A stretch of 64,000 nucleotides of DNA from Parelaphostrongylus tenuis (taxonomy: Eukaryota > Nematoda > Chromadorea > Rhabditida > Metastrongylidae). Position numbers and translations under genes: made by a program. How positions within the stretch are numbered: position 1 is the stretch's first letter; each line of letters begins with the position of its first letter. The DNA lies in assembly GCA_019055375.1 (NCBI GenBank), contig JAHQIW010007163.1, positions 1 to 64,000 on the forward strand. Direction: 5' to 3'. Below are positions 11,401-63,405 of the stretch, piece by piece. The notes under the pieces are model-generated. The model was not told the DNA's origin, did no database searches, and worked only from the letters and a program-made list of their open reading frames with translations.

Positions 11401-12348
11401 TTTCACAAAGAAAGAGAGAGAGAATCCTATGCATCGAAATAGTGGGACACACAAACCCAAAGTGCAATGACGATAGAATATTTTATTCACTCAAATTCTT
11501 TTCGCAGCGTGATTTGATATAAGATCTCTCTGCTCTTCTTATCGCTCACTTACACAATTATAAAGACATGACTATGAGTTATGTTCACTTCATGCCAGAA
11601 CACACACTCTTCCCTTTAAATTCAATGCCAAGACGAACACAGTAGCGATGCCATTCTTTGCAAGCGACTTTCTGGTTCAGTCGCCTCACCTGTACCATCA
11701 GACCTCTCGTCTTCTCATAGTCAGGAAATTGGACCAGACTTGTCTGAGGTCAACTCTCTCCGCTCTAATCCACCTGCGAACGGCTGTCCGGGGATTCAAA
11801 GAAGAATCGACTCCCATAGCATTTAACGACACTTATAAAAAAGAACTAGAATATACCAATATTAATGTAAAAAAAAGAGTAATAGTAGCTAAAGAGTTTC
11901 GGTAGTGCAGAGGTAAAACACGCACCCTCGGAAAGGGTGAAACGCGGGTTCAACTCCCATCCCAAAGGCATTCAACGTTCAACGTCATATCAATCAAAAT
12001 TATTGAAATTAGCAGCTGTGAGTGCGTTCCTAGAAAAAGGTTTTTATTTGAAATTACCAGTATTGTTATCTGATAAACTGCAATTTCATCCAGTTTTGAT
12101 CTGGAACATAGTGATCTTTCAATAAAGCTTATTAATAAGCAGAGTTCGACAACCACTTCCACTAATTCATCATTTTCTCCAACTTCAAGCTGTGCTCCGC
12201 TGGATGCTTTGTCGAACTCCAAATCGAAGGAGGTATTTCAAAGAATTAGCTGGTTTTTCAACAACGTAAAGAATCTTTCATTTTTCAGAGCAACAGAAAA
12301 TCAAGATGTGAGAGAGTCAACATCGACGATGACCATCTGAAGTTTTGA
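5498..12348 (+). CDS. Coiled-coil protein of unknown function, 5' end not found
   Basis: Seven small exons keep one frame through canonical splice sites: 5498-5584, 5907-5969, 7237-7346, 7408-7471, 7554-7646, 7716-7778 and 7984-8103, which together give exactly 200 codons. They encode a charged, Leu/Ile-spaced helix-rich chain (KKINSMKERASGLMNM, IDLEKLVTDLRAFLTTL) typical of a cytoplasmic coiled coil. Three further exons fit by phase with less certainty: 10039-10161 (contains FQCHWQKGNC, a Cys-x-Trp-x4-Cys-like patch; its acceptor is weak), 12143-12232 (Ser/Thr-rich) and 12289-12348, ending in DDDHLKF and a TGA stop. I could not find the first exon; it should lie left of 5498 or outside the window. 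The gene converges on FIG4, with about 570 bp between the two stop codons. I do not recognise the family. Alternatives: the last three exons may belong to a separate gene, and exon six could start at the acceptor near 7684. The coding nature of the first seven exons is fairly secure; the joining is inferred. Confidence 0.65.
6688..6900 (-). repeat. SINE-2 copy with the CAGCAACCAACCGT tail module
   Basis: A tRNA-like block read on the minus strand (head near 6775, B-box GGTTTGTGTCCCGC) is joined to a module containing GTCAGCAACCAACCGTCAGC and AACCCAGT. The same module recurs at about 17456-17500, 45345-45430 and 47400-47495. Confidence 0.6.
6930..7015 (+). repeat. SINE-2 tRNA-like copy
   Basis: CCAGCGGGTGAGAGCACGCG followed by GGGTTTGAGTCCC about 35 bases later mimics tRNA A and B boxes. 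It is one of about 18 diverged copies in the window. Confidence 0.5.
8392..8625 (-). repeat. SINE-1 copy
   Basis: Carries GATCAATCCCTAAGGGATT at the 3' end and the tRNA-like head (GGTGCAGTGGTTAGAGGTGC on the minus strand) at the right edge. It lies in an intron of the coiled-coil gene. Confidence 0.75.
9612..9745 (-). repeat. SINE-2 copy
   Basis: GGTGATATGCAAAACA followed by a minus-strand tRNA-like block with B-box GGTTCCGATTCCC. It lies in an intron of the coiled-coil gene. Confidence 0.65.
10179..10980. mobile_element. Foldback element FB-A, ~800 bp palindrome
   Basis: The ends TGATTATGAGG and CCTCATAATCA are inverted, and inverted similarity continues inward (CTCATTCGCTGGAGAAG versus the complement of the right end) through most of the element. 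Internal hallmarks are GCCGGTTTTCGAAAA, ATCATTCGACTGCG and a GC-rich centre with GCAGCCACGTGCGC. No open frame is evident, so it is a non-autonomous foldback/MITE. It sits right after a candidate exon of the coiled-coil gene. Confidence 0.8.
11893..11975 (+). repeat. SINE-2 tRNA-like copy
   Basis: GGTAGTGCAGAGGTAAAACA, then CGCGGGTTCAACTCCC about 35 bases on, match A- and B-box spacing. No clean acceptor stem is seen, so it is a repeat rather than a functional tRNA. Confidence 0.6.
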
Positions 12349-12919: not shown

Positions 12920-15900
12920 CTAAAATACTGAAGGATAAGCAGAGAATGCTGCAGTGTCTGCTTTGGCAAAGTAATCGTCGATGGTGATAAAGCTTTTCTC
13001 GTAGAATTTCAATGACGATTTCGATACTTCGGGCATAGTAGTCTGTAAATTCTCTTATGATTTCGGCATAAATGATTTTCAAGATCCTCAAAGAGTCAAC
13101 TTAATTTCACCTTAAAAACATCATCTGTAGTGAATATTGTCGGGCGGAATTGTATCGACGGTATATTCAAATCTGTCAAGAGAGTCGGTTTGTGTTCAAT
13201 CCAATCCTGGTAGAAATAATTCTGGACATCCATTTTTATCCATTATATTTCAATTATGCATTCTTACCTCTGTATTGAATTTATAACCGCCAAATTTCAC
13301 ATAGCTCTCATAGAAAGAAAGTGCGTTGTCAGATGGATTTAGACTCCTTATACCATATGCTTCCTTCGCAGAAAGTAATCCCGATGCGAGACCTGGATGC
13401 TCTGGAAATTCTTCAAGATTAGTAGTCAATTTAAGAGATGATAGATTCCAATGCTTACCATTCAATTCTCTTCTCGAACGGGTATTCATTTGTTGACATG
13501 GTCTATCGGAAATATTTCCGTTGACTAAACGAATCCAGGCTGGTTCGTACTGAACAACCTCATCCTCGATTTGTTCCTCCTCCAAAGTGTCATCGTCCTC
13601 ATCATCAGATTCACCGCCTCGTCCAGTCTTCTTTGTTTTCTCTTTCGATTCCTGATTTCAGGGAAGAAAAGTAAGGGGCATCGAGACTGAAAACAAGTTT
13701 TCAAATAGAGTAGTTGCCGGATACATTTTTCCACAGCTTTTCCATAGATCTGATAAATTGGCCACTGGCTAGTCCTTCTTGATTGATACCATGGAGATTA
13801 AGTCCCTGAGAGTCGACGATGATCTAAAACAAAGTAAGTGATATCTTCATATATCCATTGGATATGATGTTGAATGATATGCAAGACTTTGAAACTCGGG
13901 CGTGAGTCGATCCAGCGTCTCACCTTACCCAAAAGCGAATGCTAACAACTGCACTACCGGAGTTCCGTTTTGTCGTGGCTTTACCACTCCTACTTGATAA
14001 ACATAGAAACGCAGAACAAACTGTTATATTGACCTGCGTTTTCACCCGATACTCAAGAGTCGTCATTTCAAAAACTCGATAGAAATCATGAAAGTCATCG
14101 AGTGACGATAGTTGAAGAGGAACTCGATGTAAAAGAGCGTTGTTCCCTTCTAGAAATATTTATGAAAAGTTAAATTAAGTCTTATAAACGTTTTCAACAG
14201 AAGCCAATTATCTTACGGATTTTTTCTTCATTAGGTTGCTCTTCTTGTGCTTCATCCTGACCAAATTCTTTTGAGATCATTTTCTTAATATCCTCTTCCT
14301 CGTACATCCACGCACAATAGTCGGTGTTAACCTTCATGGTCCACATTATAGACAATGTATTACAAACCAATATCACCAGTTATTCCATGGAAACTAGCTG
14401 AAACCTTACCCGACTATGCGTTGGAAAGTGCAGGTAGTAGTCAGTGGTCAGATCCCACAAAGCCTGATTACTGCTGATTTGAGGTCTAAATCATAACAAC
14501 CCTTTTGATCAGCCTTTACGAATATAACTCAATTACTTCATTCATACTTAAATTACTTTTTCGAACTAGAATAAACTTTAGCCGTAAAAAATACATCGTT
14601 TAGAGAAACCGGATAGAGGCAAGAGTTGGTACTTTTCCGCTACCTCGACCTGCTTTAGCCTCTTGAGGAAAACGTGTTTTTTACTTTTTCAAAAGTTAAG
14701 CAGTCAATCGATTTCTCAAATCTCGAGGATGTTAATGGTGTATTTTATTTTTGGGGAGTCTTCTGACTGCGCTGTGACAGAAAATAAAATTATGTGGCAC
14801 GCCCGGGTCTTCTTCGCTGGATAAAGCCTTTCTGTTATACTTTCAGCAATCATTCGGTAGTTTAAATCTGGGCGATTTCAATGGTGTACTTTATTTCGAA
14901 AAAGAATTTCTTGGTGCGCAGTAGCAGCCAAAAGAAAATAAGTTCCAGACTGGATGCGAATTCATCGCGCATCGTGATTTACATTTGATGCGAGATTTCG
15001 GTTACTAAATTTAGATTCTTTTCCCGCTCTGAAAAACTCTGGATGAAACATACTACTCTACTACTCTAAATCTCCCCTACACGTTCATACGTTTTTCGTG
15101 CATAGATAAGCTGCTTAGGTTTAGGCTTATTAGCAGTTTTATTTAGCAATGTACAAAAAAAATGAAAAGTTTGAGCCCACATTACAAAAGAACAAAGTTA
15201 AAAGAACGCCCAATTAGCTTCAAAATCATCAAAATTTATGCTATCAAATAAGCACTGTTACAAGTTCGCAATGGCTTGGTGTTAATGTTGCAAAATCCCC
15301 TCTACAAATCTGAGCAAAGAATGCGCACCGAGTGCGAAACCCAATTTCTTTTGAGTGCTACACCATATTACGAAGCTCTGCTCAAAAAACCAGATATACC
15401 ACGAAAATCGTCGAAATTTAAGCTATCGAATGATCACTAAAGATCTAAGAGAAAAGCCCCATTTAGCGGAATATAGCTGTATGTGAAATATCTTTTTATT
15501 TTTACTGTCACAGCGCAGTATGAAGACCATTTCAAAAACGATGTACATCATTGAAATTTTCAAGATTCAAACTTTTGAGTGACTACCGAAGTTTTGGAAA
15601 AGGGCAAAAAAAGCATTTTCAAGAAAAGCTGAAACGAGGTGTGGATAACGGAGAAGTGCCCAGAAACTAATGCGATATAAAAACTAATATGAACAAATTG
15701 TAAAAGAAGCAATAAAGCAGCTTGGTACCCAACCATCACTAAAAAGTAACTGCACAAAAAAACTAAGTGATCATTAGGGCCTACTTGAAAACCCCCAAAA
15801 ATAGGTTGATTGCTGCTTGTTTGTCATAATCACCGAAAGTGTTGCTGTAATAACGAGATAAAGTCTGAATAACGTCTCTACTGCGCTCCTGAAATATAAA

Positions 15901-41279: not shown

Positions 41280-44444
<3,165 letters not shown>

Positions 44445-45207: not shown

Positions 45208-45430
45208 ATGATGTTGTTGATATGCAATACTTTGAACTTCGGGCGGGAATCGAACCCGTATTTCACTCTTTCTGGAGACGCGTACTAACCAACTGGACTA
45301 CCAAAGCTCCTGTTCTGCTATCACTCTTTCTGTGATAAAAGATATCGGTCAGTGACCATCGGTCAACGGTTTGGTCTGGTGAGCACGCATCTGCACTGAA
45401 CCCAGTTAAGCGACAGGTACTAGATATATA
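45208..45430 (-). repeat. SINE-2 copy with tail module
   Basis: GTTGATATGCAATACTTTG, B-box GGGTTCGATTCCCGCC on the minus strand, then at 45345-45430 the module with GGTCAACGGTTTGGTC and AACCCAGTTAAGC. Confidence 0.7.
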
Positions 45431-45775: not shown

Positions 45776-46032
45776 ATTTCAAAAAAATAGTTAGAATAAC
45801 AATGATAATAATAATAAGAATAAGAACAATAGTGAGATAAACTAACAATGATACCAATAATATGGACGACAAAATTATAAAGGTTGTGTAAAAAAAATCG
45901 TGCCGTTTTGGATTTTTAACATAATTTTTGCAATCGAAGTGCACATGATTTCGATATTGCTAAACTGTGCACTTTCTAGCGAACATTTTCGTTTACACAT
46001 TGAATAAACTTGCTCCAAGATAGATAGTTTCC

Positions 46033-46225
46033 GTGGGAACGAACTCGTCTGCTACTCATGCTCGAATGGAGCCTAGGGGGAAAGTGGCTAGTGAAGCGGC
46101 GCTCAAGACTATTCGCGTTTGGGGCACTGATATGGTTGCAGAAAGGACGATTAGGATGTCGTTGGCGAAGTTCAAAGCTGGAGAGAATAGTCTGGAGGAT
46201 CAGTCACGCTCAGACCGTCCAGTCC
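46033..46225 (+). pseudogene. Mariner transposase N-terminal fragment
   Basis: The frame from 46033 contains AERTIRMSLAKFKAGENSLE followed by QSRSDRP, the helix-turn-helix and linker of mariner transposases, preceded by GTNSSATHARMEPRGK. No catalytic DDD region follows; the copy runs into an inverted fragment. Hookworms are known to carry a mariner element (bandit), which fits but is not proof. Confidence 0.75.
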
Positions 46226-46330
46226 ACTGTCTCATAGGAAGCTTCATCAATCTTGCACACCGCTTCACTAGCGCATTCTCTCCTACGAGCGCCATTCGTG
46301 CATGAGTAGCAAGCGAATTTGTTCCAGGAA
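46205..46330 (-). pseudogene. Second mariner transposase fragment, inverted
   Basis: The minus strand reads GTNSLATHARMAL and, in another frame, ECASEAVCKIDEA, the same N-terminal region as the plus-strand fragment. Frameshifts separate the two parts. It abuts the plus-strand copy tail to tail. Confidence 0.6.
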
Positions 46331-55963: not shown

Positions 55964-58900
55964 ATGTTTCACGTGATTTTCATATATGTGGTGGCGAGGT
56001 TTCTGGCATTATCGGCTTTTGTTCATCAAGCGACTCTAGACGATGCCGTTCTCGAACATCCAAATCTTTCGGATTTTCTCTCCAGAGGTTTGTTCGTCTT
56101 GCCTTGACTCTTACCCTCATGCTTATTGTTTCGTATCATTATAGTGATAAAACTTTGTTAATGACGTCACCAATCGCTATTGTTGCACCAAAATCCCCTC
56201 ATTCTCCTCCTCCCACCCTCACCCAAAAAATGTGCTCTTTTCTGACCGGTTAACTTCAGCAGGCGTATTCGCTGGCGTGGGAACGACTCCAGCTCCTCTG
56301 CCCGCTTAGTCGCCGACTGCAGAATTGCTTTTTCTTGCAAGACCGTCCGCGAATTAGTCCAAACTTAACTGTGGGTCTTGCAACGAAAAGTGATACTGTA
56401 GCGGGCGATTTATGGGGGCAGAGGGGAAACACGCTGGTGGGCGCGCCCAGCGTGGGTCCGCGGAAGTCAGCCGGCTAAGTAGTACTTTGAACTCTTTATT
56501 TTTCTCACTTTATGCTTCATTCCAAAAGACATAGATTATTTCACTTGCCTTCATCTTCAACAAATGCTGATGATGAATGGAAAAACCGGCTCTAACTAAA
56601 TCACGGCTTGTAAATTGAGAAATAATGTCAATTTACTCACAAAGTGCGCGCACGAAATTGATATATCTTTTTCAAAACGATGGCTAAAGTTTCGGGGACT
56701 TCTTCTTCTTAAGAGCCGCTTATCAGGTTCAATATTGTTGTAGTAAGTCTTGAGACTCACACTCTACTAAGCCCGTCAAAACAGTTTTGAAGAAGGCGAA
56801 GTCATCGAAACATCACTAATCCATATTAACCCATGAAGGACGATATACACCAGTTGAGGCACACGATTGTTTGAAAGCCTTCCTCTCTGGACAAAATTCT
56901 TCTCTTAGACATTTAGTAATTATTCGAAAACACAGATACCTGCAATTTCAACGATACGTTTGATTTTTGAAAGTCTTTTTTAATTACGTTGTAGCAGAGA
57001 AAATAGAACCATTTTTCCTTTCAGTTTGCTTCATTTCCTCGCTTATATATAATGCTTTTCGCCGAACTTCATTGATTATTCGATAGACCAAATCTCGAGA
57101 CTTTCGATGCTGTAATTGATTTTCTAAAAGGTAATTACAGAGCGCTTTAAGAATGAAAACAAGATTACGTTTCACACTCAAAGTTTTTATCGTACAGAAG
57201 AGTTATATATGCACGAAAGACATATGACCATGTAGAGGAAATCATGTAGCATCAGAGTAACATAAAAATCCAGGGTTTCCTTCCCAAATGGAGAAGAAAA
57301 CCCTAATTGAACGAAAATCGCACGCCTTTTGCGAGTTCCGCTGTGCGTTCGATCAACTGCCGTCCCTAAAGTGCTGATAAAGATATACTGGTTTTTTTTT
57401 CTTACTTTCTGGCATTCTTCCAACTTTTGCACGCTCGCCAGTGAGGTGAGGTTGGACCCATGATTTCTAGTGATACTAATGAGTGAATATATGAACAGTA
57501 TTTGAAAAAGTTTAGTTCGCACTCAGCGATTTTTCCTTGATCCTTTCGCTACGGCGATAGTTTTCGGCCAACAGGGTTCGGACGGCACAACGAGCATATA
57601 GGCGTTTTTTTCATTGAAAAAAGACTTTTAAACAAGTCTCTCCAATGATATTCCATCATCTAGTAATGAAAATATCACCTTAAAAGCTTAATTTAGCAAT
57701 TAGGTACCACAATTTTTTTGAGGGTCGTCACAATCGTCGTAAGCCGTCCGAACAGCGCAGGCACGCTCGTATTGGTTTCGTGACACACCGTTAAATTTTT
57801 CATAATCTTTGTTACATAGGAGCTGCCAATTGGTAACAAAATTTCTTACAGGTAGTTATCTTGGTGAGCAGAACGTTGATTATGAGTACGATGAGCTGAA
57901 GAATCGTACTCGGCAGTCTCATCATGATAATGAAGACCGAGACGATGGAGAAGTAGATCAAGGCGACAGTGAAGTCAGTGAGGAAAGGTTGGTGGTCATC
58001 AAAGGTCATTCAGCCCTTCGTGTATCGTCTTTTTTTTCACTATCCGCTGATTTTGAAGTCCCTGCATGAGCTACATTTGTTTTCCTTTATGCTTTTGAAG
58101 GAGAAAATTTGATCCCTTTCTGTTAGACGGCAACAAATGAATACTCGACTCATTTGCTGGACAAGGATTTTTCATAGGAGTGTTAGTGATCATTCGAAAG
58201 CTTGAATCTCTGGCTAAAGCCGTACATGGCCGGTTTCTCGAAACATCTTTTTATAACACTCTAAAACGAAAATAAAATCATGTTTCACGCGAACATATTT
58301 TTTGAAGTATGGAGCTTTTTCTTTAGACTATCAGGATTCGTTTGATAGCCTGAAATTTACCGATTCCAACGCTGTGCTTTTGTCCCGAGGAAACCGTTTT
58401 TCTGCATCACATCAGGGAAAATAAGATTGATTCACATGCGCGAGCGAGTGTTCCTTGGCCAATTCACGGGCTATGTGATGGGGGCGGGAGGCGGGTCGAG
58501 GAGATCATCGATCGATGGCGCCTAAGTGAAGTGTTTCTTATTAGGAATTGTTTTTACGTTTCCGAAGAAATTCTGAATTAAACGTCTGACTGTGATGCTA
58601 GAAGATTCTCTCTACACGTTCAAGTCCTCTTCTTACTGCCAGGGAAGTAATGCTTGAATTGCACGGCCAGTGTGTTATATATTTTTATTTTTAAATTTAA
58701 CTTCCATAAAAGGTACGATCTGTACACTATGCTGAAGAAGTCCGAAGCGAAGGAATGTTATTGTGATCAGTATTTAGAAGGCAATCTTTGGAGGAGAACA
58801 GTTGGCTCTGAAGAAGGCGAACTGCGAAACGTCAGCTGTGAAATAAAGCCTAATGTAACACCTCGTGTTTTGCTTAAAGGAGAAAATCAGGAATTATATT

Positions 58901-61900
58901 GAAGCATGCCGAGGGTAATAGACATTCGGTCTTGGGAATTGTCATAAAAGGGTTTTTCATAAAGCGTACATGTAGAGCACTAGCTTGAGATTTGAGCTTT
59001 CGAATGATTACTAACACTGTTTATGAAAACTTCTTGTCCAGCATTGGCGATAGGCTTGAAAATCTGCGACTACGAAACGGAAAATAACCCCGTTTTCCTT
59101 CATGTTTTGAAGGCCGAAATTTTTTGCAGATTTGTAACTTTGGAGAGCAGTAGCAGTAATTTGGATGAAAATAATAGGTATCGAGTTGTTCTTTTGCGTC
59201 TAACTCTGACTGACCTACCTTTGTTTCTACTGTTTAACACCCTTTCCTGAAGAGCTCACCCAATTAGTCTTCTCTTCTGTTTAGACCGAAATTGTGAACA
59301 GTTTCAGAAATGAAGATCGTGGTGAGTTTATTGGTGATAGCCGAGATGGCTTCAACGAAGTGAAGCCGAATCAGCAACGAGTGGCCCCTGTTGTCGTCAT
59401 TAACAGTGCTTTCAACAACAGGTATGCCATCTCCATTCTCTATTCTTTTAGTAAAACACTTGCGAGCTGTTTCTGCTCATATTTTTTTTTTTCAATTTTA
59501 GGTTTGTAGTCTTTGTTTGTTGCAATCTTGAGTACTTTTCCGTTATCTTCACCCTCTTTGACTCCTTTGGTAAAAACGTATTTTTTGATTTTATTTGAAG
59601 TGTAAATACTCACTCAATAGCTGAAATTAGACAAAAATGAACAGTCTTTTTTATCTTTCAAAAAGCTTCTTTTTTGCGCTGTTACAGTCGAAATAAAATT
59701 CTGTTTCACATCAACGGATTTCTCGCCAGATAAGTTTTTTCCCATAAATAATCGATAACTGTTTGATAGCACATATATCAAAATTTTTGAAATATAGTTG
59801 GTTTTTGGAATGGATCACTTAGAGCGGTGTAACATTCAAAAGAAGATGGGGTTTTGCACACTGCAAAGGGTGAAATTTCGAAACATTGGCCCGGGCCCCC
59901 GCGCTATTTGCAAAGTAACGGTTATGTGCAAAACGTTATCTTCTTTTGGCTGCTACGGCGCTTTAAGTAGTCCATTCTCAAAACAATTGCATTTTATAAC
60001 TTATTGAGATTTACGCAATCGAATGATTGTTGAAATTCTAGAAAATAAGATTTCTCCAGCGAGAAATGCTTGAGTGTCAAAGCTAGTTTTATTTTCACCG
60101 TTAGAGCACATCAAGGATATCATTCTGACAACAAAGTATGCCTCCGAAATTGCCGTGATTTCAACTGTCGAACTGATATCGAAACTCTGGAAATCAAAAA
60201 CAGCGTTTTTTCAAGAGATGAAAACAAGGTGCGGAAATCGAAAGTGGTCGATATTTACGAAGCCTAATTTTCTTTTGACTGTTACAGCGTTCTAAAGAGT
60301 CCCTCCTGGAAACCTAGTACACCGTTGAAATTTCTGAGATTCGCGTCAACTAGTGATTAATGATTGTTTATGAAAAAATCTTTATCCAGCGATAAATACT
60401 TAAATGTGGAGCAAAATTTTATTTCGGCTATTACACCAAAAAGCAGGCATTCGGGAAATAAAATACATAGTTCAAATTCACTTGTTCTGAGGTATAGAAT
60501 GTCTACCAGAACGTTTTACAACAGCAAAAAGCAGGTTTTTAGCAAAGGACTCAATCAGGGTGGAGATAACGAAAAGTACCCAGTTTTGTCTCTTTTTGTA
60601 CTTTTAATGCGCTCCATGCACCATTTTTGACTTTCTGGAACTAAACTCACTGTTTCGGACGTAGCTTTATATACTTCGCAGATCTACATCTTTTTTTTTA
60701 CACCTTTCTCATGTCTCATTTGTTGTGTTATGGAAAATCGTTTTGAGCATTTCAATCTAACTATTTTTTTTACTTTTACAGCGTATTATAAATGAGATAG
60801 TTTCCAGGAAGTCTTTCGCATGTCCAAAAATTAAAACCGATTTGATGACGGGCACTTCAATTGGTGATCTTAGCCCTGAAGATATCAGAATCATCGCTTC
60901 GATGGGCGACGCATTGGCGGTATGAGTTTTTTTTTCAATTTTCACCGTAGAGTAGAGAAGAGCAAAATTGCTTTATATTTTTATTGGGAAAAAATCTGAA
61001 TTTTTCGGTCGTAAGGAACCCATGACTCGGTTCAGCGGGAGGCCACCGCGAGTCATTGTATAGGCCAGATGTGCATTCAATCACATGCATGGCGCTTCCC
61101 TCAGGGATCGATCAACGCCGAGAGCTTTATCCTTTACCCTTTAGGGAACCCATACAACAGGTCTTCCGAGTAAATCTGAAGAGAGAAAAGTCGGATAGAT
61201 CTTTAGAAATGGAGAATGCTAGGATGTAATGAAAATTTTGAGCGGGGATATATCTACGTCTGACTGATTTCCTCATGCGTTCGCGTATACCACTAATCTA
61301 ACTTGAGGATCTTCGCCACTATGAGTTTTTAGTTTAACCCCTTCTTACAGTTTGTTCGCGTTCTGCTTCCCTGATGAGGTTAATAGAAAGTTTACTGAAG
61401 AATTTCGCGTGGACATACAGTGATTCTATGCTGAAATAACTGTTCTTTCAAAGAATAAACCGATATGTCTTAGCTCGTTGTGGGCGTTACTAGTAGAAAT
61501 AGAAACCGCAAAAATCTACAGATACTTTCCATCCAACGCCAAATCTTCCATTTTGTCTTTCTGCTGTCATGGATGGTAATATATTGTTTGTCGAGAACTT
61601 GAAACATGATTTTTTTTTACTTCTCTGTTGTTGAGACTCGTGAATCGAGCATAAAAGTCTGTGGGGAACAAACGAGAGTTCCTTCAGCTGGGTATTGTTT
61701 CGTTTTGCAGCTGCCGCGTCTGTGAAACTAAAAAGTTGGGTTCATTTTCCACTTTTGAGAGATTTTGGTCAAGACACCATGACAGAACCATCACTTCGCC
61801 CCTTCATCTGGAGTGCTGCCACCCGCTCTGCCTCGCATGCAAGAGCGGCCCAATGGATTCTCCTGGCTCGTAGGGATTCGTTGAGCGCCATATCTTTCCC

Positions 61901-63145
61901 CCGGCTTTTCATAAAGAAACTGGACCATTGGGTCAGGTGGTTTTCCTGTGATGCATCTTTCGAGATATTCAGTTGGTTACGGCTCTCGTTCATCGGTTGT
62001 CGTTGGAAACCCACTACATGTCCGGCTCATCTTATCATCGAAAGCCTGGCGTGTAGAACGGCATCCTTGACTTTTTGTTTGTTGGCGCTAGAATTGCTCT
62101 CCTTCAAAATTTTCATAAAGAAAGCTGAGGGTTCTTTTACGTCGTTGAGTTCCATTTCAACTGTTTTCACTACATGGTGGTCAAGTTATTTAGACTGGTT
62201 TGGGACTATGGCCAAGGACAAATATTGAATTTCGTGGAGCTGCTTTTCCTAGCGGTGGGGACGCTACTATTGATGGCCTTGTCACCATACCAAGTAAGAC
62301 TTTCGTAATTGACTTCAGGTATAGCATAACAATATAAAGATTGTAAGTGTAGGAGAAGCTTTTCAGTTGCTGTGACAACAAAGCCAAACAATCAATATAG
62401 TCAATTTTGAGATATACTTCGTGAGTTCAATAATCACTTAATTGGTGTCTCTCATGGAATGGGTACACGAGATCAACTTCCCGAAACTCAACTCAGTGTT
62501 GCTGAGAGTGGAGCAACGACCGATATGATGCCGGAACAGGTAGTCATTATTTTTCTCTACTCTTGAGCCTTTTGACAACGAAGTATTCACTTTGTTTTAT
62601 AAAATGCACAAATTTTCTCATTATTTCGGTGCCTTAGTATCGGTAAAAGAGGTGGCAAAGCGGTGGCCTAGGCGGTGTAGCGGTAGTATGCACTCATGGC
62701 ATAGGTCTAACACGGGTTCACTTCCCGCCCGGAGTGGAGATTCTTGCATATAACTTAGACTCTTAGAATATGTGATCATAGCATTGCTTTCAGAGCGCTA
62801 TAAATGAATTGTAATAGAGGATATCTCTTATTATGACCCTATTTAGGCACGAGAACTCGTTCGACGTCTGAAAAATCTGGTAGAAGTGGATTATAGAGAG
62901 CACTGGATAATGGTCATTGTGACGATTGGTACAGAAGAGGTACACAAGGCCATGAAAACATTTCAATTGAGGGTTTTCTTTTTGACTTGTTTGCTTCAGG
63001 TCTGCTCCAGATGTACATCACCAAACTTCACTGCTCTTGTTGAAGCAGTCGACATTTTACAAAAGAACCTTCCACGAGCGTTTGTGGTACTTCTGGGGCC
63101 AATTCATGTCTCGTTTCCGCAGAAACTCAAGGGTAACTTATTGAA
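55964..63145 (+). CDS. Secreted phospholipase-B1-like (GDSL/SGNH) protein, catalytic residues lost, 3' partial
   Basis: Eight exons in phase: 55964-56087, 57852-57987, 59308-59421, 60808-60919, 62194-62293, 62412-62539, 62847-62939, 63000-63145 (953 bp); the gene continues beyond the last donor. The start encodes a signal peptide (VIFIYVVARFLALSAFV). A very acidic linker follows at about residues 42-115. Then comes the phospholipase B1 fold: SPEDIRIIASMGD, GLWPRTNIEFRG, the block II SGGD at 182-185, VTIPNILREFN and KNLPRAFVVLLGP. Active family members have GDSL, whose Ser is the nucleophile, and GGND. Here the first reads GDAL (Ala160) and the second GTEE (266-269). The C-terminal catalytic Asp-x-x-His block should lie to the right of the window. 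The gene is probably a pseudoenzyme or a decaying paralogue; frame and splice sites are intact. Introns contain palindromes, SINEs and an RTE relic. The acceptors of exons 3 and 4 were chosen by phase among alternatives. Confidence 0.87.
56240..56480. mobile_element. Short palindromic element in intron 1 of the lipase-like gene
   Basis: CCGGTTAACTTC at left and GGAAGTCAGCCGGCTAAG at right are inverted, as are CTCTGCCCGC and GGGGGCAGAGG. It is GC-richer than its surroundings and resembles the middle arms of the hairpin at 47715-48420. Confidence 0.55.
58121..59060. mobile_element. Foldback element FB-A in intron 2 of the lipase-like gene
   Basis: Left arm TTCATAGGAGTGTTAGTGAT with GCCGGTTTCTCGAAA; right arm GCTTTCGAATGATTACTAAC. 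The right half is expanded by an insert at about 58640-58920 that carries the GAAGAAGGCGAA module. Confidence 0.7.
59640..60360. mobile_element. FB-B-like element in intron 3 of the lipase-like gene
   Basis: GCGCTGTTACAGTCGAAAT at left pairs with TTGACTGTTACAGCG at right, and internal CAGCG-rich blocks recur. It is degenerate, with no open frame of note. Confidence 0.5.
61040..61145 (+). repeat. SINE-1 3' half in an intron of the lipase-like gene
   Basis: AGGCCACCGCGAGTCATTGT to CTCAGGGATCGATCAACGCC and GAGAGCTTTATCCT; the tRNA-like head is missing. Confidence 0.8.
61765..62030 (-). pseudogene. Decayed RTE retrotransposon tail
   Basis: The minus strand contains LTQWSSFFMKS and ESLRARRIHWAALA, matching the WSDFFxK and RxxRxHWATLA tail motifs of RTE elements, with several substitutions. 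It lies just before exon 5 of the lipase-like gene. The 177-codon frame on the plus strand here is an antisense shadow. Confidence 0.6.
62663..62750 (+). repeat. SINE-2 tRNA-like copy in an intron of the lipase-like gene
   Basis: CTAGGCGGTGTAGCGGTAG and CACGGGTTCACTTCCCGCCC have good A/B-box spacing, and a GCATATAACTTAG tail follows. Confidence 0.7.
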
Positions 63146-63299
63146 GTGAGTTTTTTTAATAGAAAGAATTTCTTCTTTTAGGAGGAACTCGCTTTTGATT
63201 GGGCTAGGTATCGCCCTTAACACTTGTTATCTGTCTGTCTGCGAATGGACTTTCAGAGAAAGTTTTATGATTGCTAAAAGTCGAGAGTGAAAGCAGAGC

Positions 63300-63405
63300 A
63301 GTGGCCTCTGTGGTGTAGCGGTAGCAGGCGTCCCCGGTGGCGATTAAACGCGGGTTCAACTTCCTTTTGGAGTCAAAAGTTATATATATATATCACCCAG
63401 CATTC
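63300..63405 (+). repeat. SINE-2 tRNA-like copy
   Basis: CTCTGTGGTGTAGCGGTAGC and AAACGCGGGTTCAACTTCC form the block; a short TATATA tract and CACCCAGCATTC follow. Confidence 0.7.

What the first reader, a model, noticed from the sequence alone, without database searches (positions are those of the whole stretch)
60808..62939. Secreted phospholipase-B1-like protein without its catalytic serine or GxND motif
Seen: the fold's landmarks are conserved in frame (block II GGD, VTIPNIL, LPRAFV), but GDSL has become GDAL through a TCA-to-GCA type change (Ala160), and GGND has become GTEE (266-269). Known: the Ser is the nucleophile and the Asn/Gly of blocks II-III form the oxyanion hole in SGNH hydrolases. 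Inference: this is a secreted pseudoenzyme, perhaps a lipid-binding or decoy protein, kept in frame with intact splice sites. Loss of two separate catalytic blocks with the frame preserved argues against random decay.
Basis: partly seen in the sequence, partly recalled or inferred. Interest (0 to 1): 0.75.

Follow-up and report, generated by a model that had tools for sequence, protein, structure and literature searches.

The report
Nematode-wide inactive lipase-like membrane protein
A worm gene that looks like a fat-digesting enzyme has lost the enzyme's working parts, and its sampled relatives across the roundworms show the same losses, so it is probably an old, well-kept membrane protein that binds something rather than cuts it.

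The parts
55964..56087 (+). exon 1: start ATG and hydrophobic N-terminus (probable signal peptide, residues 1-22)
   Evidence: splices to P0039 residues 1-41; helix 2-22 in the model; no signal-peptide program was run
57852..57987 (+). exon 2: acidic N-terminal segment (residues 42-86)
   Evidence: ten-residue blocks 41-90 have mean pLDDT 35-50
59308..59421 (+). exon 3: residues 87-124
60808..60919 (+). exon 4: CPK...LSPEDI...MGDALA, block I
60911..60913 (+). GCA codon, Ala160 at the SGNH nucleophile position (Ser in 92 of 102 canonical PLB1 rows)
62194..62293 (+). exon 5: TGLGLWP..FRGAAFPSGGDATIDGLVTIP(N), block II (Gly183, Gly184 kept)
62412..62539 (+). exon 6: (N)ILREFNN..GVSHGMG..MPEQ
62847..62939 (+). 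exon 7: ARELVRR..VTIGTEE, block III
62928..62939 (+). GTEE (residues 266-269) in place of GGND
   Evidence: 0 of 113 nematode rows have Asn268; 94 of 102 canonical rows do
63000..63145 (+). exon 8: VCSRC..NLPRAFVVLLGPIHVSF..NLL (residues 270-317); the gene goes on beyond this exon; P0039 found no further exon in the window

Best explanation
The gene encodes a probable single-pass membrane protein whose extracellular part is an SGNH (phospholipase-B1-like) fold that has lost the oxyanion Asn, the catalytic Asp and His, and here also the nucleophilic Ser. It belongs to a nematode pseudoenzyme branch of the PLB1 family spread over clades III, IV and V, with at least two gene types. Shown: the sequence facts, homology, residue losses, order of loss by parsimony on one tree, and fold by prediction. 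Inferred: no ester hydrolysis; outward-facing ectodomain with a cytoplasmic tail. Inferred with less certainty: the former lipid pocket is kept as a binding site, so that the protein works as a lipid- or ligand-binding surface receptor, scaffold or carrier. My own odds: catalytically dead by the SGNH mechanism 0.9; membrane-anchored 0.85; binding role at the old cleft 0.4.
For: Joint alignment of 113 nematode rows and 102 canonical PLB1 rows: nucleophile A51 S51 N5 G3 F1 gap 2 against S92; Asn268 0 of 113 against N94; His385 0 of 113 against H101; Asp382 12 of 113 against D100. In the thinned set of 91 nematode rows: S45 A36 N5 G3 F1 gap 1, Asn268 0, His385 0. 83 core columns are at least 95% conserved in the family, so the fold is kept while Asn, His and mostly Asp are gone. 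Profile-profile alignment independently pairs APDCFH with IPNKPL. Every ten-residue block from 131 to 400 of the model has mean pLDDT 92 or more; best solved neighbours are AOAH and bacterial and fungal SGNH esterases. Hydrophobic segment near the C-terminus in 95 of 98 rows testable. A glycosylation sequon at Asn409 in 109 of 113 family rows and 0 of 102 canonical rows fits an extracellular position. A canonical nematode PLB1 with GDSL, GGND and DCFH also exists (Diploscapter P0211), so the family looks like a separate duplicate. For binding without catalysis: most of the closest PDB entries are Ser-to-Ala AOAH mutants, several with LPS, lipid A or phosphatidylcholine by their titles.
Against: Ser is kept in 51 of 113 rows, which leaves room for residual or altered chemistry there. 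GTEE, LLNR(R/K)GH and GVSHGMG are so well conserved that a new active site cannot be excluded. Block II Gly184 is kept. A test whether catalytic columns were lost more often than other canonical-conserved columns is weak: 4 of 4 against 21 of 58, p 0.023, if Gly184 is left out, but 4 of 5 against 21 of 57, p 0.15, if it is counted. Some canonical rows also lack Ser (4 other letters and 6 gaps of 102). Foldseek's own TM-scores are low (0.24-0.27 by query length for its five best). No ligand, expression or biochemical data exist here. Rows are not independent (isoforms, sister species). The C-terminal half is taken from the database protein, not from the window.
Confidence: 0.6

Rival explanations
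1. Neo-enzyme: the fold has changed chemistry, with the conserved Asp185, His210, Glu268/Glu269, Arg388 and His391 forming a new catalytic or metal site in the old cleft.
For: These positions are strongly conserved in the family; Glu268 and Glu269 prevail where canonical PLB1 has Asn and Asp (0.87 and 0.95 of family rows).
Confidence: 0.12
2. Residual SGNH hydrolase: members with Ser still hydrolyse, and only the Ala members are dead.
For: Ser is kept in 51 of 113 rows, including filariae, ascarids and root-knot and cyst nematodes.
Against: No row at all, Ser rows included, has Asn268 or His385; Ser has been replaced repeatedly by Ala, Asn, Gly or Phe while the rest stayed.
Confidence: 0.1
3. 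Parasite-specific secreted decoy or host-lipid scavenger.
For: Hydrophobic N-terminus; present in many parasites.
Against: TM-like segment near the C-terminus; present in free-living nematodes.
Confidence: 0.04
4. Artefact: decaying pseudogene or assembly error.
For: The assembly rests on long reads with a mean Phred score of 8 (PMC10940269).
Against: Intact frame and splice sites; same residues in other species; seven strongylid orthologues 76-89% identical.
Confidence: 0.01

Closest known systems
Phospholipase B1, membrane-associated (PLB1; Pfam PF00657 Lipase_GDSL)
   Same: Same domain over 314 columns (E 6.7e-53), shared cysteines (130, 271, 274, 321, 323, 422), block II glycines, C-terminal CP..PY..N segment; membrane anchoring is recalled as a PLB1 feature.
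   Different: Asn and His replaced in all sampled family rows that have a letter, Asp in most, Ser in about half; GTEE and LLNR(R/K)GH prevail instead; gained sequon at Asn409; acidic N-terminal extension in P0039.
Acyloxyacyl hydrolase (AOAH), PDB 5w78, 5w7a-5w7f
   Different: Only 15-16% identity; AOAH is an active enzyme (recalled) and an entry title mentions a saposin domain; no counterpart was looked for separately here.
Canonical nematode PLB1 (Diploscapter P0211)
   Same: Same phylum, same fold family.
   Different: Has GDSLS, GGND and DCFH; groups with the other canonical rows on the tree, though it is a long branch for which the tree program gave a warning.
Inactive repeats of mammalian PLB1 (recalled, no paper read)
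   Same: Catalytically impaired copies of an SGNH domain retained in evolution.
   Different: Those are repeats within one active protein; this is a stand-alone gene family spread over nematodes.

Membership tests
SGNH/GDSL hydrolase fold (PF00657) | sequence profile and alpha/beta/alpha SGNH fold | tested here: met
SGNH/GDSL hydrolase, catalytically active | block I Ser nucleophile | tested here: not met
   Ala160, codon GCA
SGNH/GDSL hydrolase, catalytically active | block II oxyanion Gly | tested here: met
   Gly183 and Gly184 in 112 and 111 of 113 rows
SGNH/GDSL hydrolase, catalytically active | block III Asn (GxND) | tested here: not met
   GTEE in the window; 0 of 113 rows with Asn
SGNH/GDSL hydrolase, catalytically active | block V Asp and His (DxxH) | tested here: not met
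   NKPL at 382-385 of P0039, outside the window; His in 0 of 113 rows, Asp in 12
Phospholipase B1 family | homology over the PLB1 catalytic domain with its cysteines | tested here: met
   hhalign E 6.7e-53 over 314 columns; Cys columns shared
Phospholipase B1 family | phospholipase/lipase activity | not testable with these tools
   no assay; residues argue against it
Pseudoenzyme | catalytic residues lost, fold and gene retained across species | tested here: met
Pseudoenzyme | no catalytic activity | not testable with these tools
   needs protein
Acyloxyacyl hydrolase | saposin domain plus SGNH domain | tested here: inconclusive
   SGNH part matches; no saposin-like part was looked for separately; Pfam scan of P0039 gave PF00657 alone

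The most novel reading that the evidence does not exclude
A nematode-wide set of membrane-anchored PLB1-derived receptors (or carriers) that turned a phospholipase cleft into a ligand-sensing pocket before clades III, IV and V split, losing the oxyanion Asn and catalytic His first and then shedding the nucleophile repeatedly and independently. If so, they would be an undescribed class of surface lipid receptors common to free-living and parasitic worms.
Probability: 0.3. Interest if true: 0.75.

Novelty: new variant of a known kind. Interest (0 to 1): 0.5.

Why it matters
Database names such as Triacylglycerol lipase, GDSL-like Lipase/Acylhydrolase or Phospholipase B1 attached to these proteins would lead people to expect an enzyme in filariae, hookworms and root-knot nematodes. 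The family is also a natural series of how an enzyme dies: base and oxyanion Asn go once, at the root, while the nucleophile drifts afterwards. Because several free-living Caenorhabditis species carry both gene types, the function should be testable in a laboratory worm.

Tried and rejected
Pseudogene or assembly error: rejected (shared residues in many species). An alternative exon restoring GGND: none seen; exon 7 ends exactly at GTEE and exon 8 starts with VCSRC, as in the relatives. First exon model with acceptor at 60782: rejected on phase; the acceptor is at 60808. PDB by sequence: no relevant match, single sequence or profile; fold comparison was needed. NCBIfam: no match for three proteins. 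Papers: of eight searches, seven were on the topic (others returned zero papers) and one on the species; I saw listings only, capped at 6-15 rows, except PMC10940269, of which I read part 1 of 3. The longest stop-free frame in the window (61644-62225, mostly intron 4) has no Pfam match; a blastn of that intron against plasmids gave nothing. The Fisher test on lost columns is not relied on, as its result hangs on whether Gly184 is counted.

Limits of the counts: one search listed 120 of 154 hits and one search listed 120 of 1214. The 113 nematode rows are those of at least 380 aa out of 140 proteins, P0039 included; the 102 canonical rows are those of 340-520 aa out of 120 listed. Shorter rows were dropped; mis-spliced models that lack an exon remain as gaps or odd letters (for example P0008, P0118). 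The tree used 101 hand-chosen rows (91 nematode, 10 canonical), quick method; 29 of 98 inner branches are weak, 33 are starred, and several rows, P0139 and the canonical ones above all, have long branches. Rows of the beta type do not form one supported group on it.

Full report
Check of the observation. The spliced reading frame at 55964-63145 is eight exons with AG/GT splice signals and equals residues 1-317 of the deposited Parelaphostrongylus tenuis protein KIN20_034804, here P0039, 554 aa. Its genome paper is PMC10940269 (part 1 of 3 read). Ala160 (GCA, 60911-60913) stands in GDAL; GTEE (62928-62939) stands where canonical PLB1 has GGND.

What it belongs to. A search with the spliced protein gave 36 proteins at E 1e-5 or better among 622 candidates; the 32 with a species name are nematode proteins, 4 are unnamed. 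A profile search gave 154, of which the 120 listed are again nematode wherever a species is named. A search seeded with a recalled mammalian PLB1 repeat gave 1214 relatives, 120 listed, from vertebrates, molluscs, echinoderms, rotifers, flatworms and others, with one nematode among the named rows, Diploscapter. Profile-profile comparison of 35 family rows with 17 canonical rows gives E 6.7e-53 over 314 columns. So this is a PLB1 relative, but in a branch of its own: on the 101-row tree the 91 nematode rows and the 10 canonical rows are parted by a branch with SH-aLRT 100.

Gene types. The window's gene falls in a 55-row group (SH-aLRT 99, my name alpha; full-length members about 530-580 aa) with filariae, ascarids, tylenchs, Steinernema, Caenorhabditis and strongylids. 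The other 36 nematode rows (beta type, about 460 aa, one of them named Protein T19D7.7) form several groups whose joint origin the tree does not settle. Ascarids, Steinernema, Caenorhabditis and strongylids have both types. Clade numbers are recalled.

What is lost and when. In 113 nematode rows of 380 aa or more: nucleophile Ala 51, Ser 51, Asn 5, Gly 3, Phe 1, gap 2; block III Asn 0; block V His 0; block V Asp 12. In 102 canonical rows: Ser 92, Asn 94, His 101, Asp 100. The thinned 91 rows tell the same: Ser 45, Ala 36, Asn 5, Gly 3, Phe 1, gap 1, no Asn268, no His385. Block III reads G-T/S-E/D/Q-E in nearly all family rows; the row that branches first, Thelazia P0139 (a long branch, place unsure), has GTDQ. 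By parsimony the oxyanion Asn and the base went once, on the stem; the Ser survived in several branches (ascarids, filariae, root-knot and cyst nematodes, beta-type members of Caenorhabditis and Pristionchus) and was replaced later several times. At least 11 changes of letter are needed, which may include returns; the label Ala needs 8, of which starred branches force 6. Congeners differ: Ditylenchus destructor Ser and D. dipsaci Ala, Aphelenchoides fujianensis Ser and A. besseyi Ala (beta type), A. besseyi Ser and A. bicaudatus Ala (alpha). Column 160 is more variable than 55.6% of the core columns, while its neighbours Gly158 and Asp159 rank at 13.1% and 19.2%. In the alpha members of clade V on the tree position 160 is Ala, or Gly in three Pristionchus, so the window's Ala160 is an inherited state, not a new mutation.

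Topology. P0039 has a hydrophobic N-terminus and a second hydrophobic helix at 468-499 followed by 55 residues; 95 of the 98 family rows with enough sequence show a matching segment. With the sequon and the shared cysteines this fits a single-pass protein with the SGNH domain outside.

Mechanism. Shown: predicted fold, losses, conservation, and order of losses on one tree. Inferred from the known SGNH mechanism (recalled): without Asn, Asp and His there is poor oxyanion stabilisation and no general base, so even the Ser-keeping members should be dead or nearly so. Inferred with less certainty: the domain binds a lipid or other ligand in its old cleft at the cell surface. AOAH Ser-to-Ala mutants crystallised with LPS, lipid A and phosphatidylcholine (titles) show that a nucleophile-less SGNH domain can hold lipids; those keep their Asn and His (recalled), so the parallel is partial. 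The main rival, a rebuilt active site using the conserved acids and histidines, is not excluded.

Against a parasite decoy: the family is present in Caenorhabditis, Pristionchus, Panagrellus and Auanema, which are free-living (recalled). No paper holding the name T19D7.7 was found.

Novelty. No paper on this family turned up in the listings, all in one open-access library; subscription papers, WormBase notes and theses were not searched. PLB1-like and GDSL annotation is already in the databases; what seems new is that the whole sampled branch is catalytically disarmed, probably membrane-anchored, and has lost its nucleophile repeatedly.

Score. The single gene is ordinary within its family; the family is of moderate interest.

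Noticed in passing
62655-62750, 63293-63390, 44158-44260 (+) and about 34760-34670 (-): Repeats with a tRNA-like look (GGTGTAGCGGTAG, then about 30 bases on GGTTCAACTTCC or similar) sit in introns of this gene and elsewhere in the window; two copies share a 37-base stretch at 81%. They look like tRNA-derived SINEs and may help explain the 9,623 tRNA genes reported for this genome (PMC10940269).
   Followed up: partly
11896-11969 (+) and 45234-45307 (-): ARAGORN calls tRNA-Ser(GGA) and tRNA-Trp(CCA); Rfam scores are only just above the cut-off (34.5 and 30.1 against 29), so these may also be tRNA-derived repeats.
   Followed up: partly
46024-46302 (+): Fragment resembling the HTH domain of a Mos1 transposase (E 9e-4, 19.8 bits, below Pfam's cut-off of 24.1).
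   Followed up: no
61644-62225 (+), with minus-strand frames at 61769-62185: Longest stop-free frame of the window (194 codons) lies mostly in intron 4 of this gene, in another frame than exon 5; no Pfam match. The minus-strand frames there look protein-like to the eye; perhaps remains of a mobile element.
   Followed up: partly
13253-13657 (-): 135-codon open frame with an acidic start, coding-like to the eye, no Pfam match; possibly an exon of another gene.
   Followed up: no
P0034, P0020, P0026, P0211 (database proteins): Database names for relatives are inconsistent or misleading: Secreted phosphoprotein 24 (Nippostrongylus P0034), and Triacylglycerol lipase for pseudoenzyme members (P0020, P0026) and the canonical Diploscapter protein (P0211) alike.
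   Followed up: no
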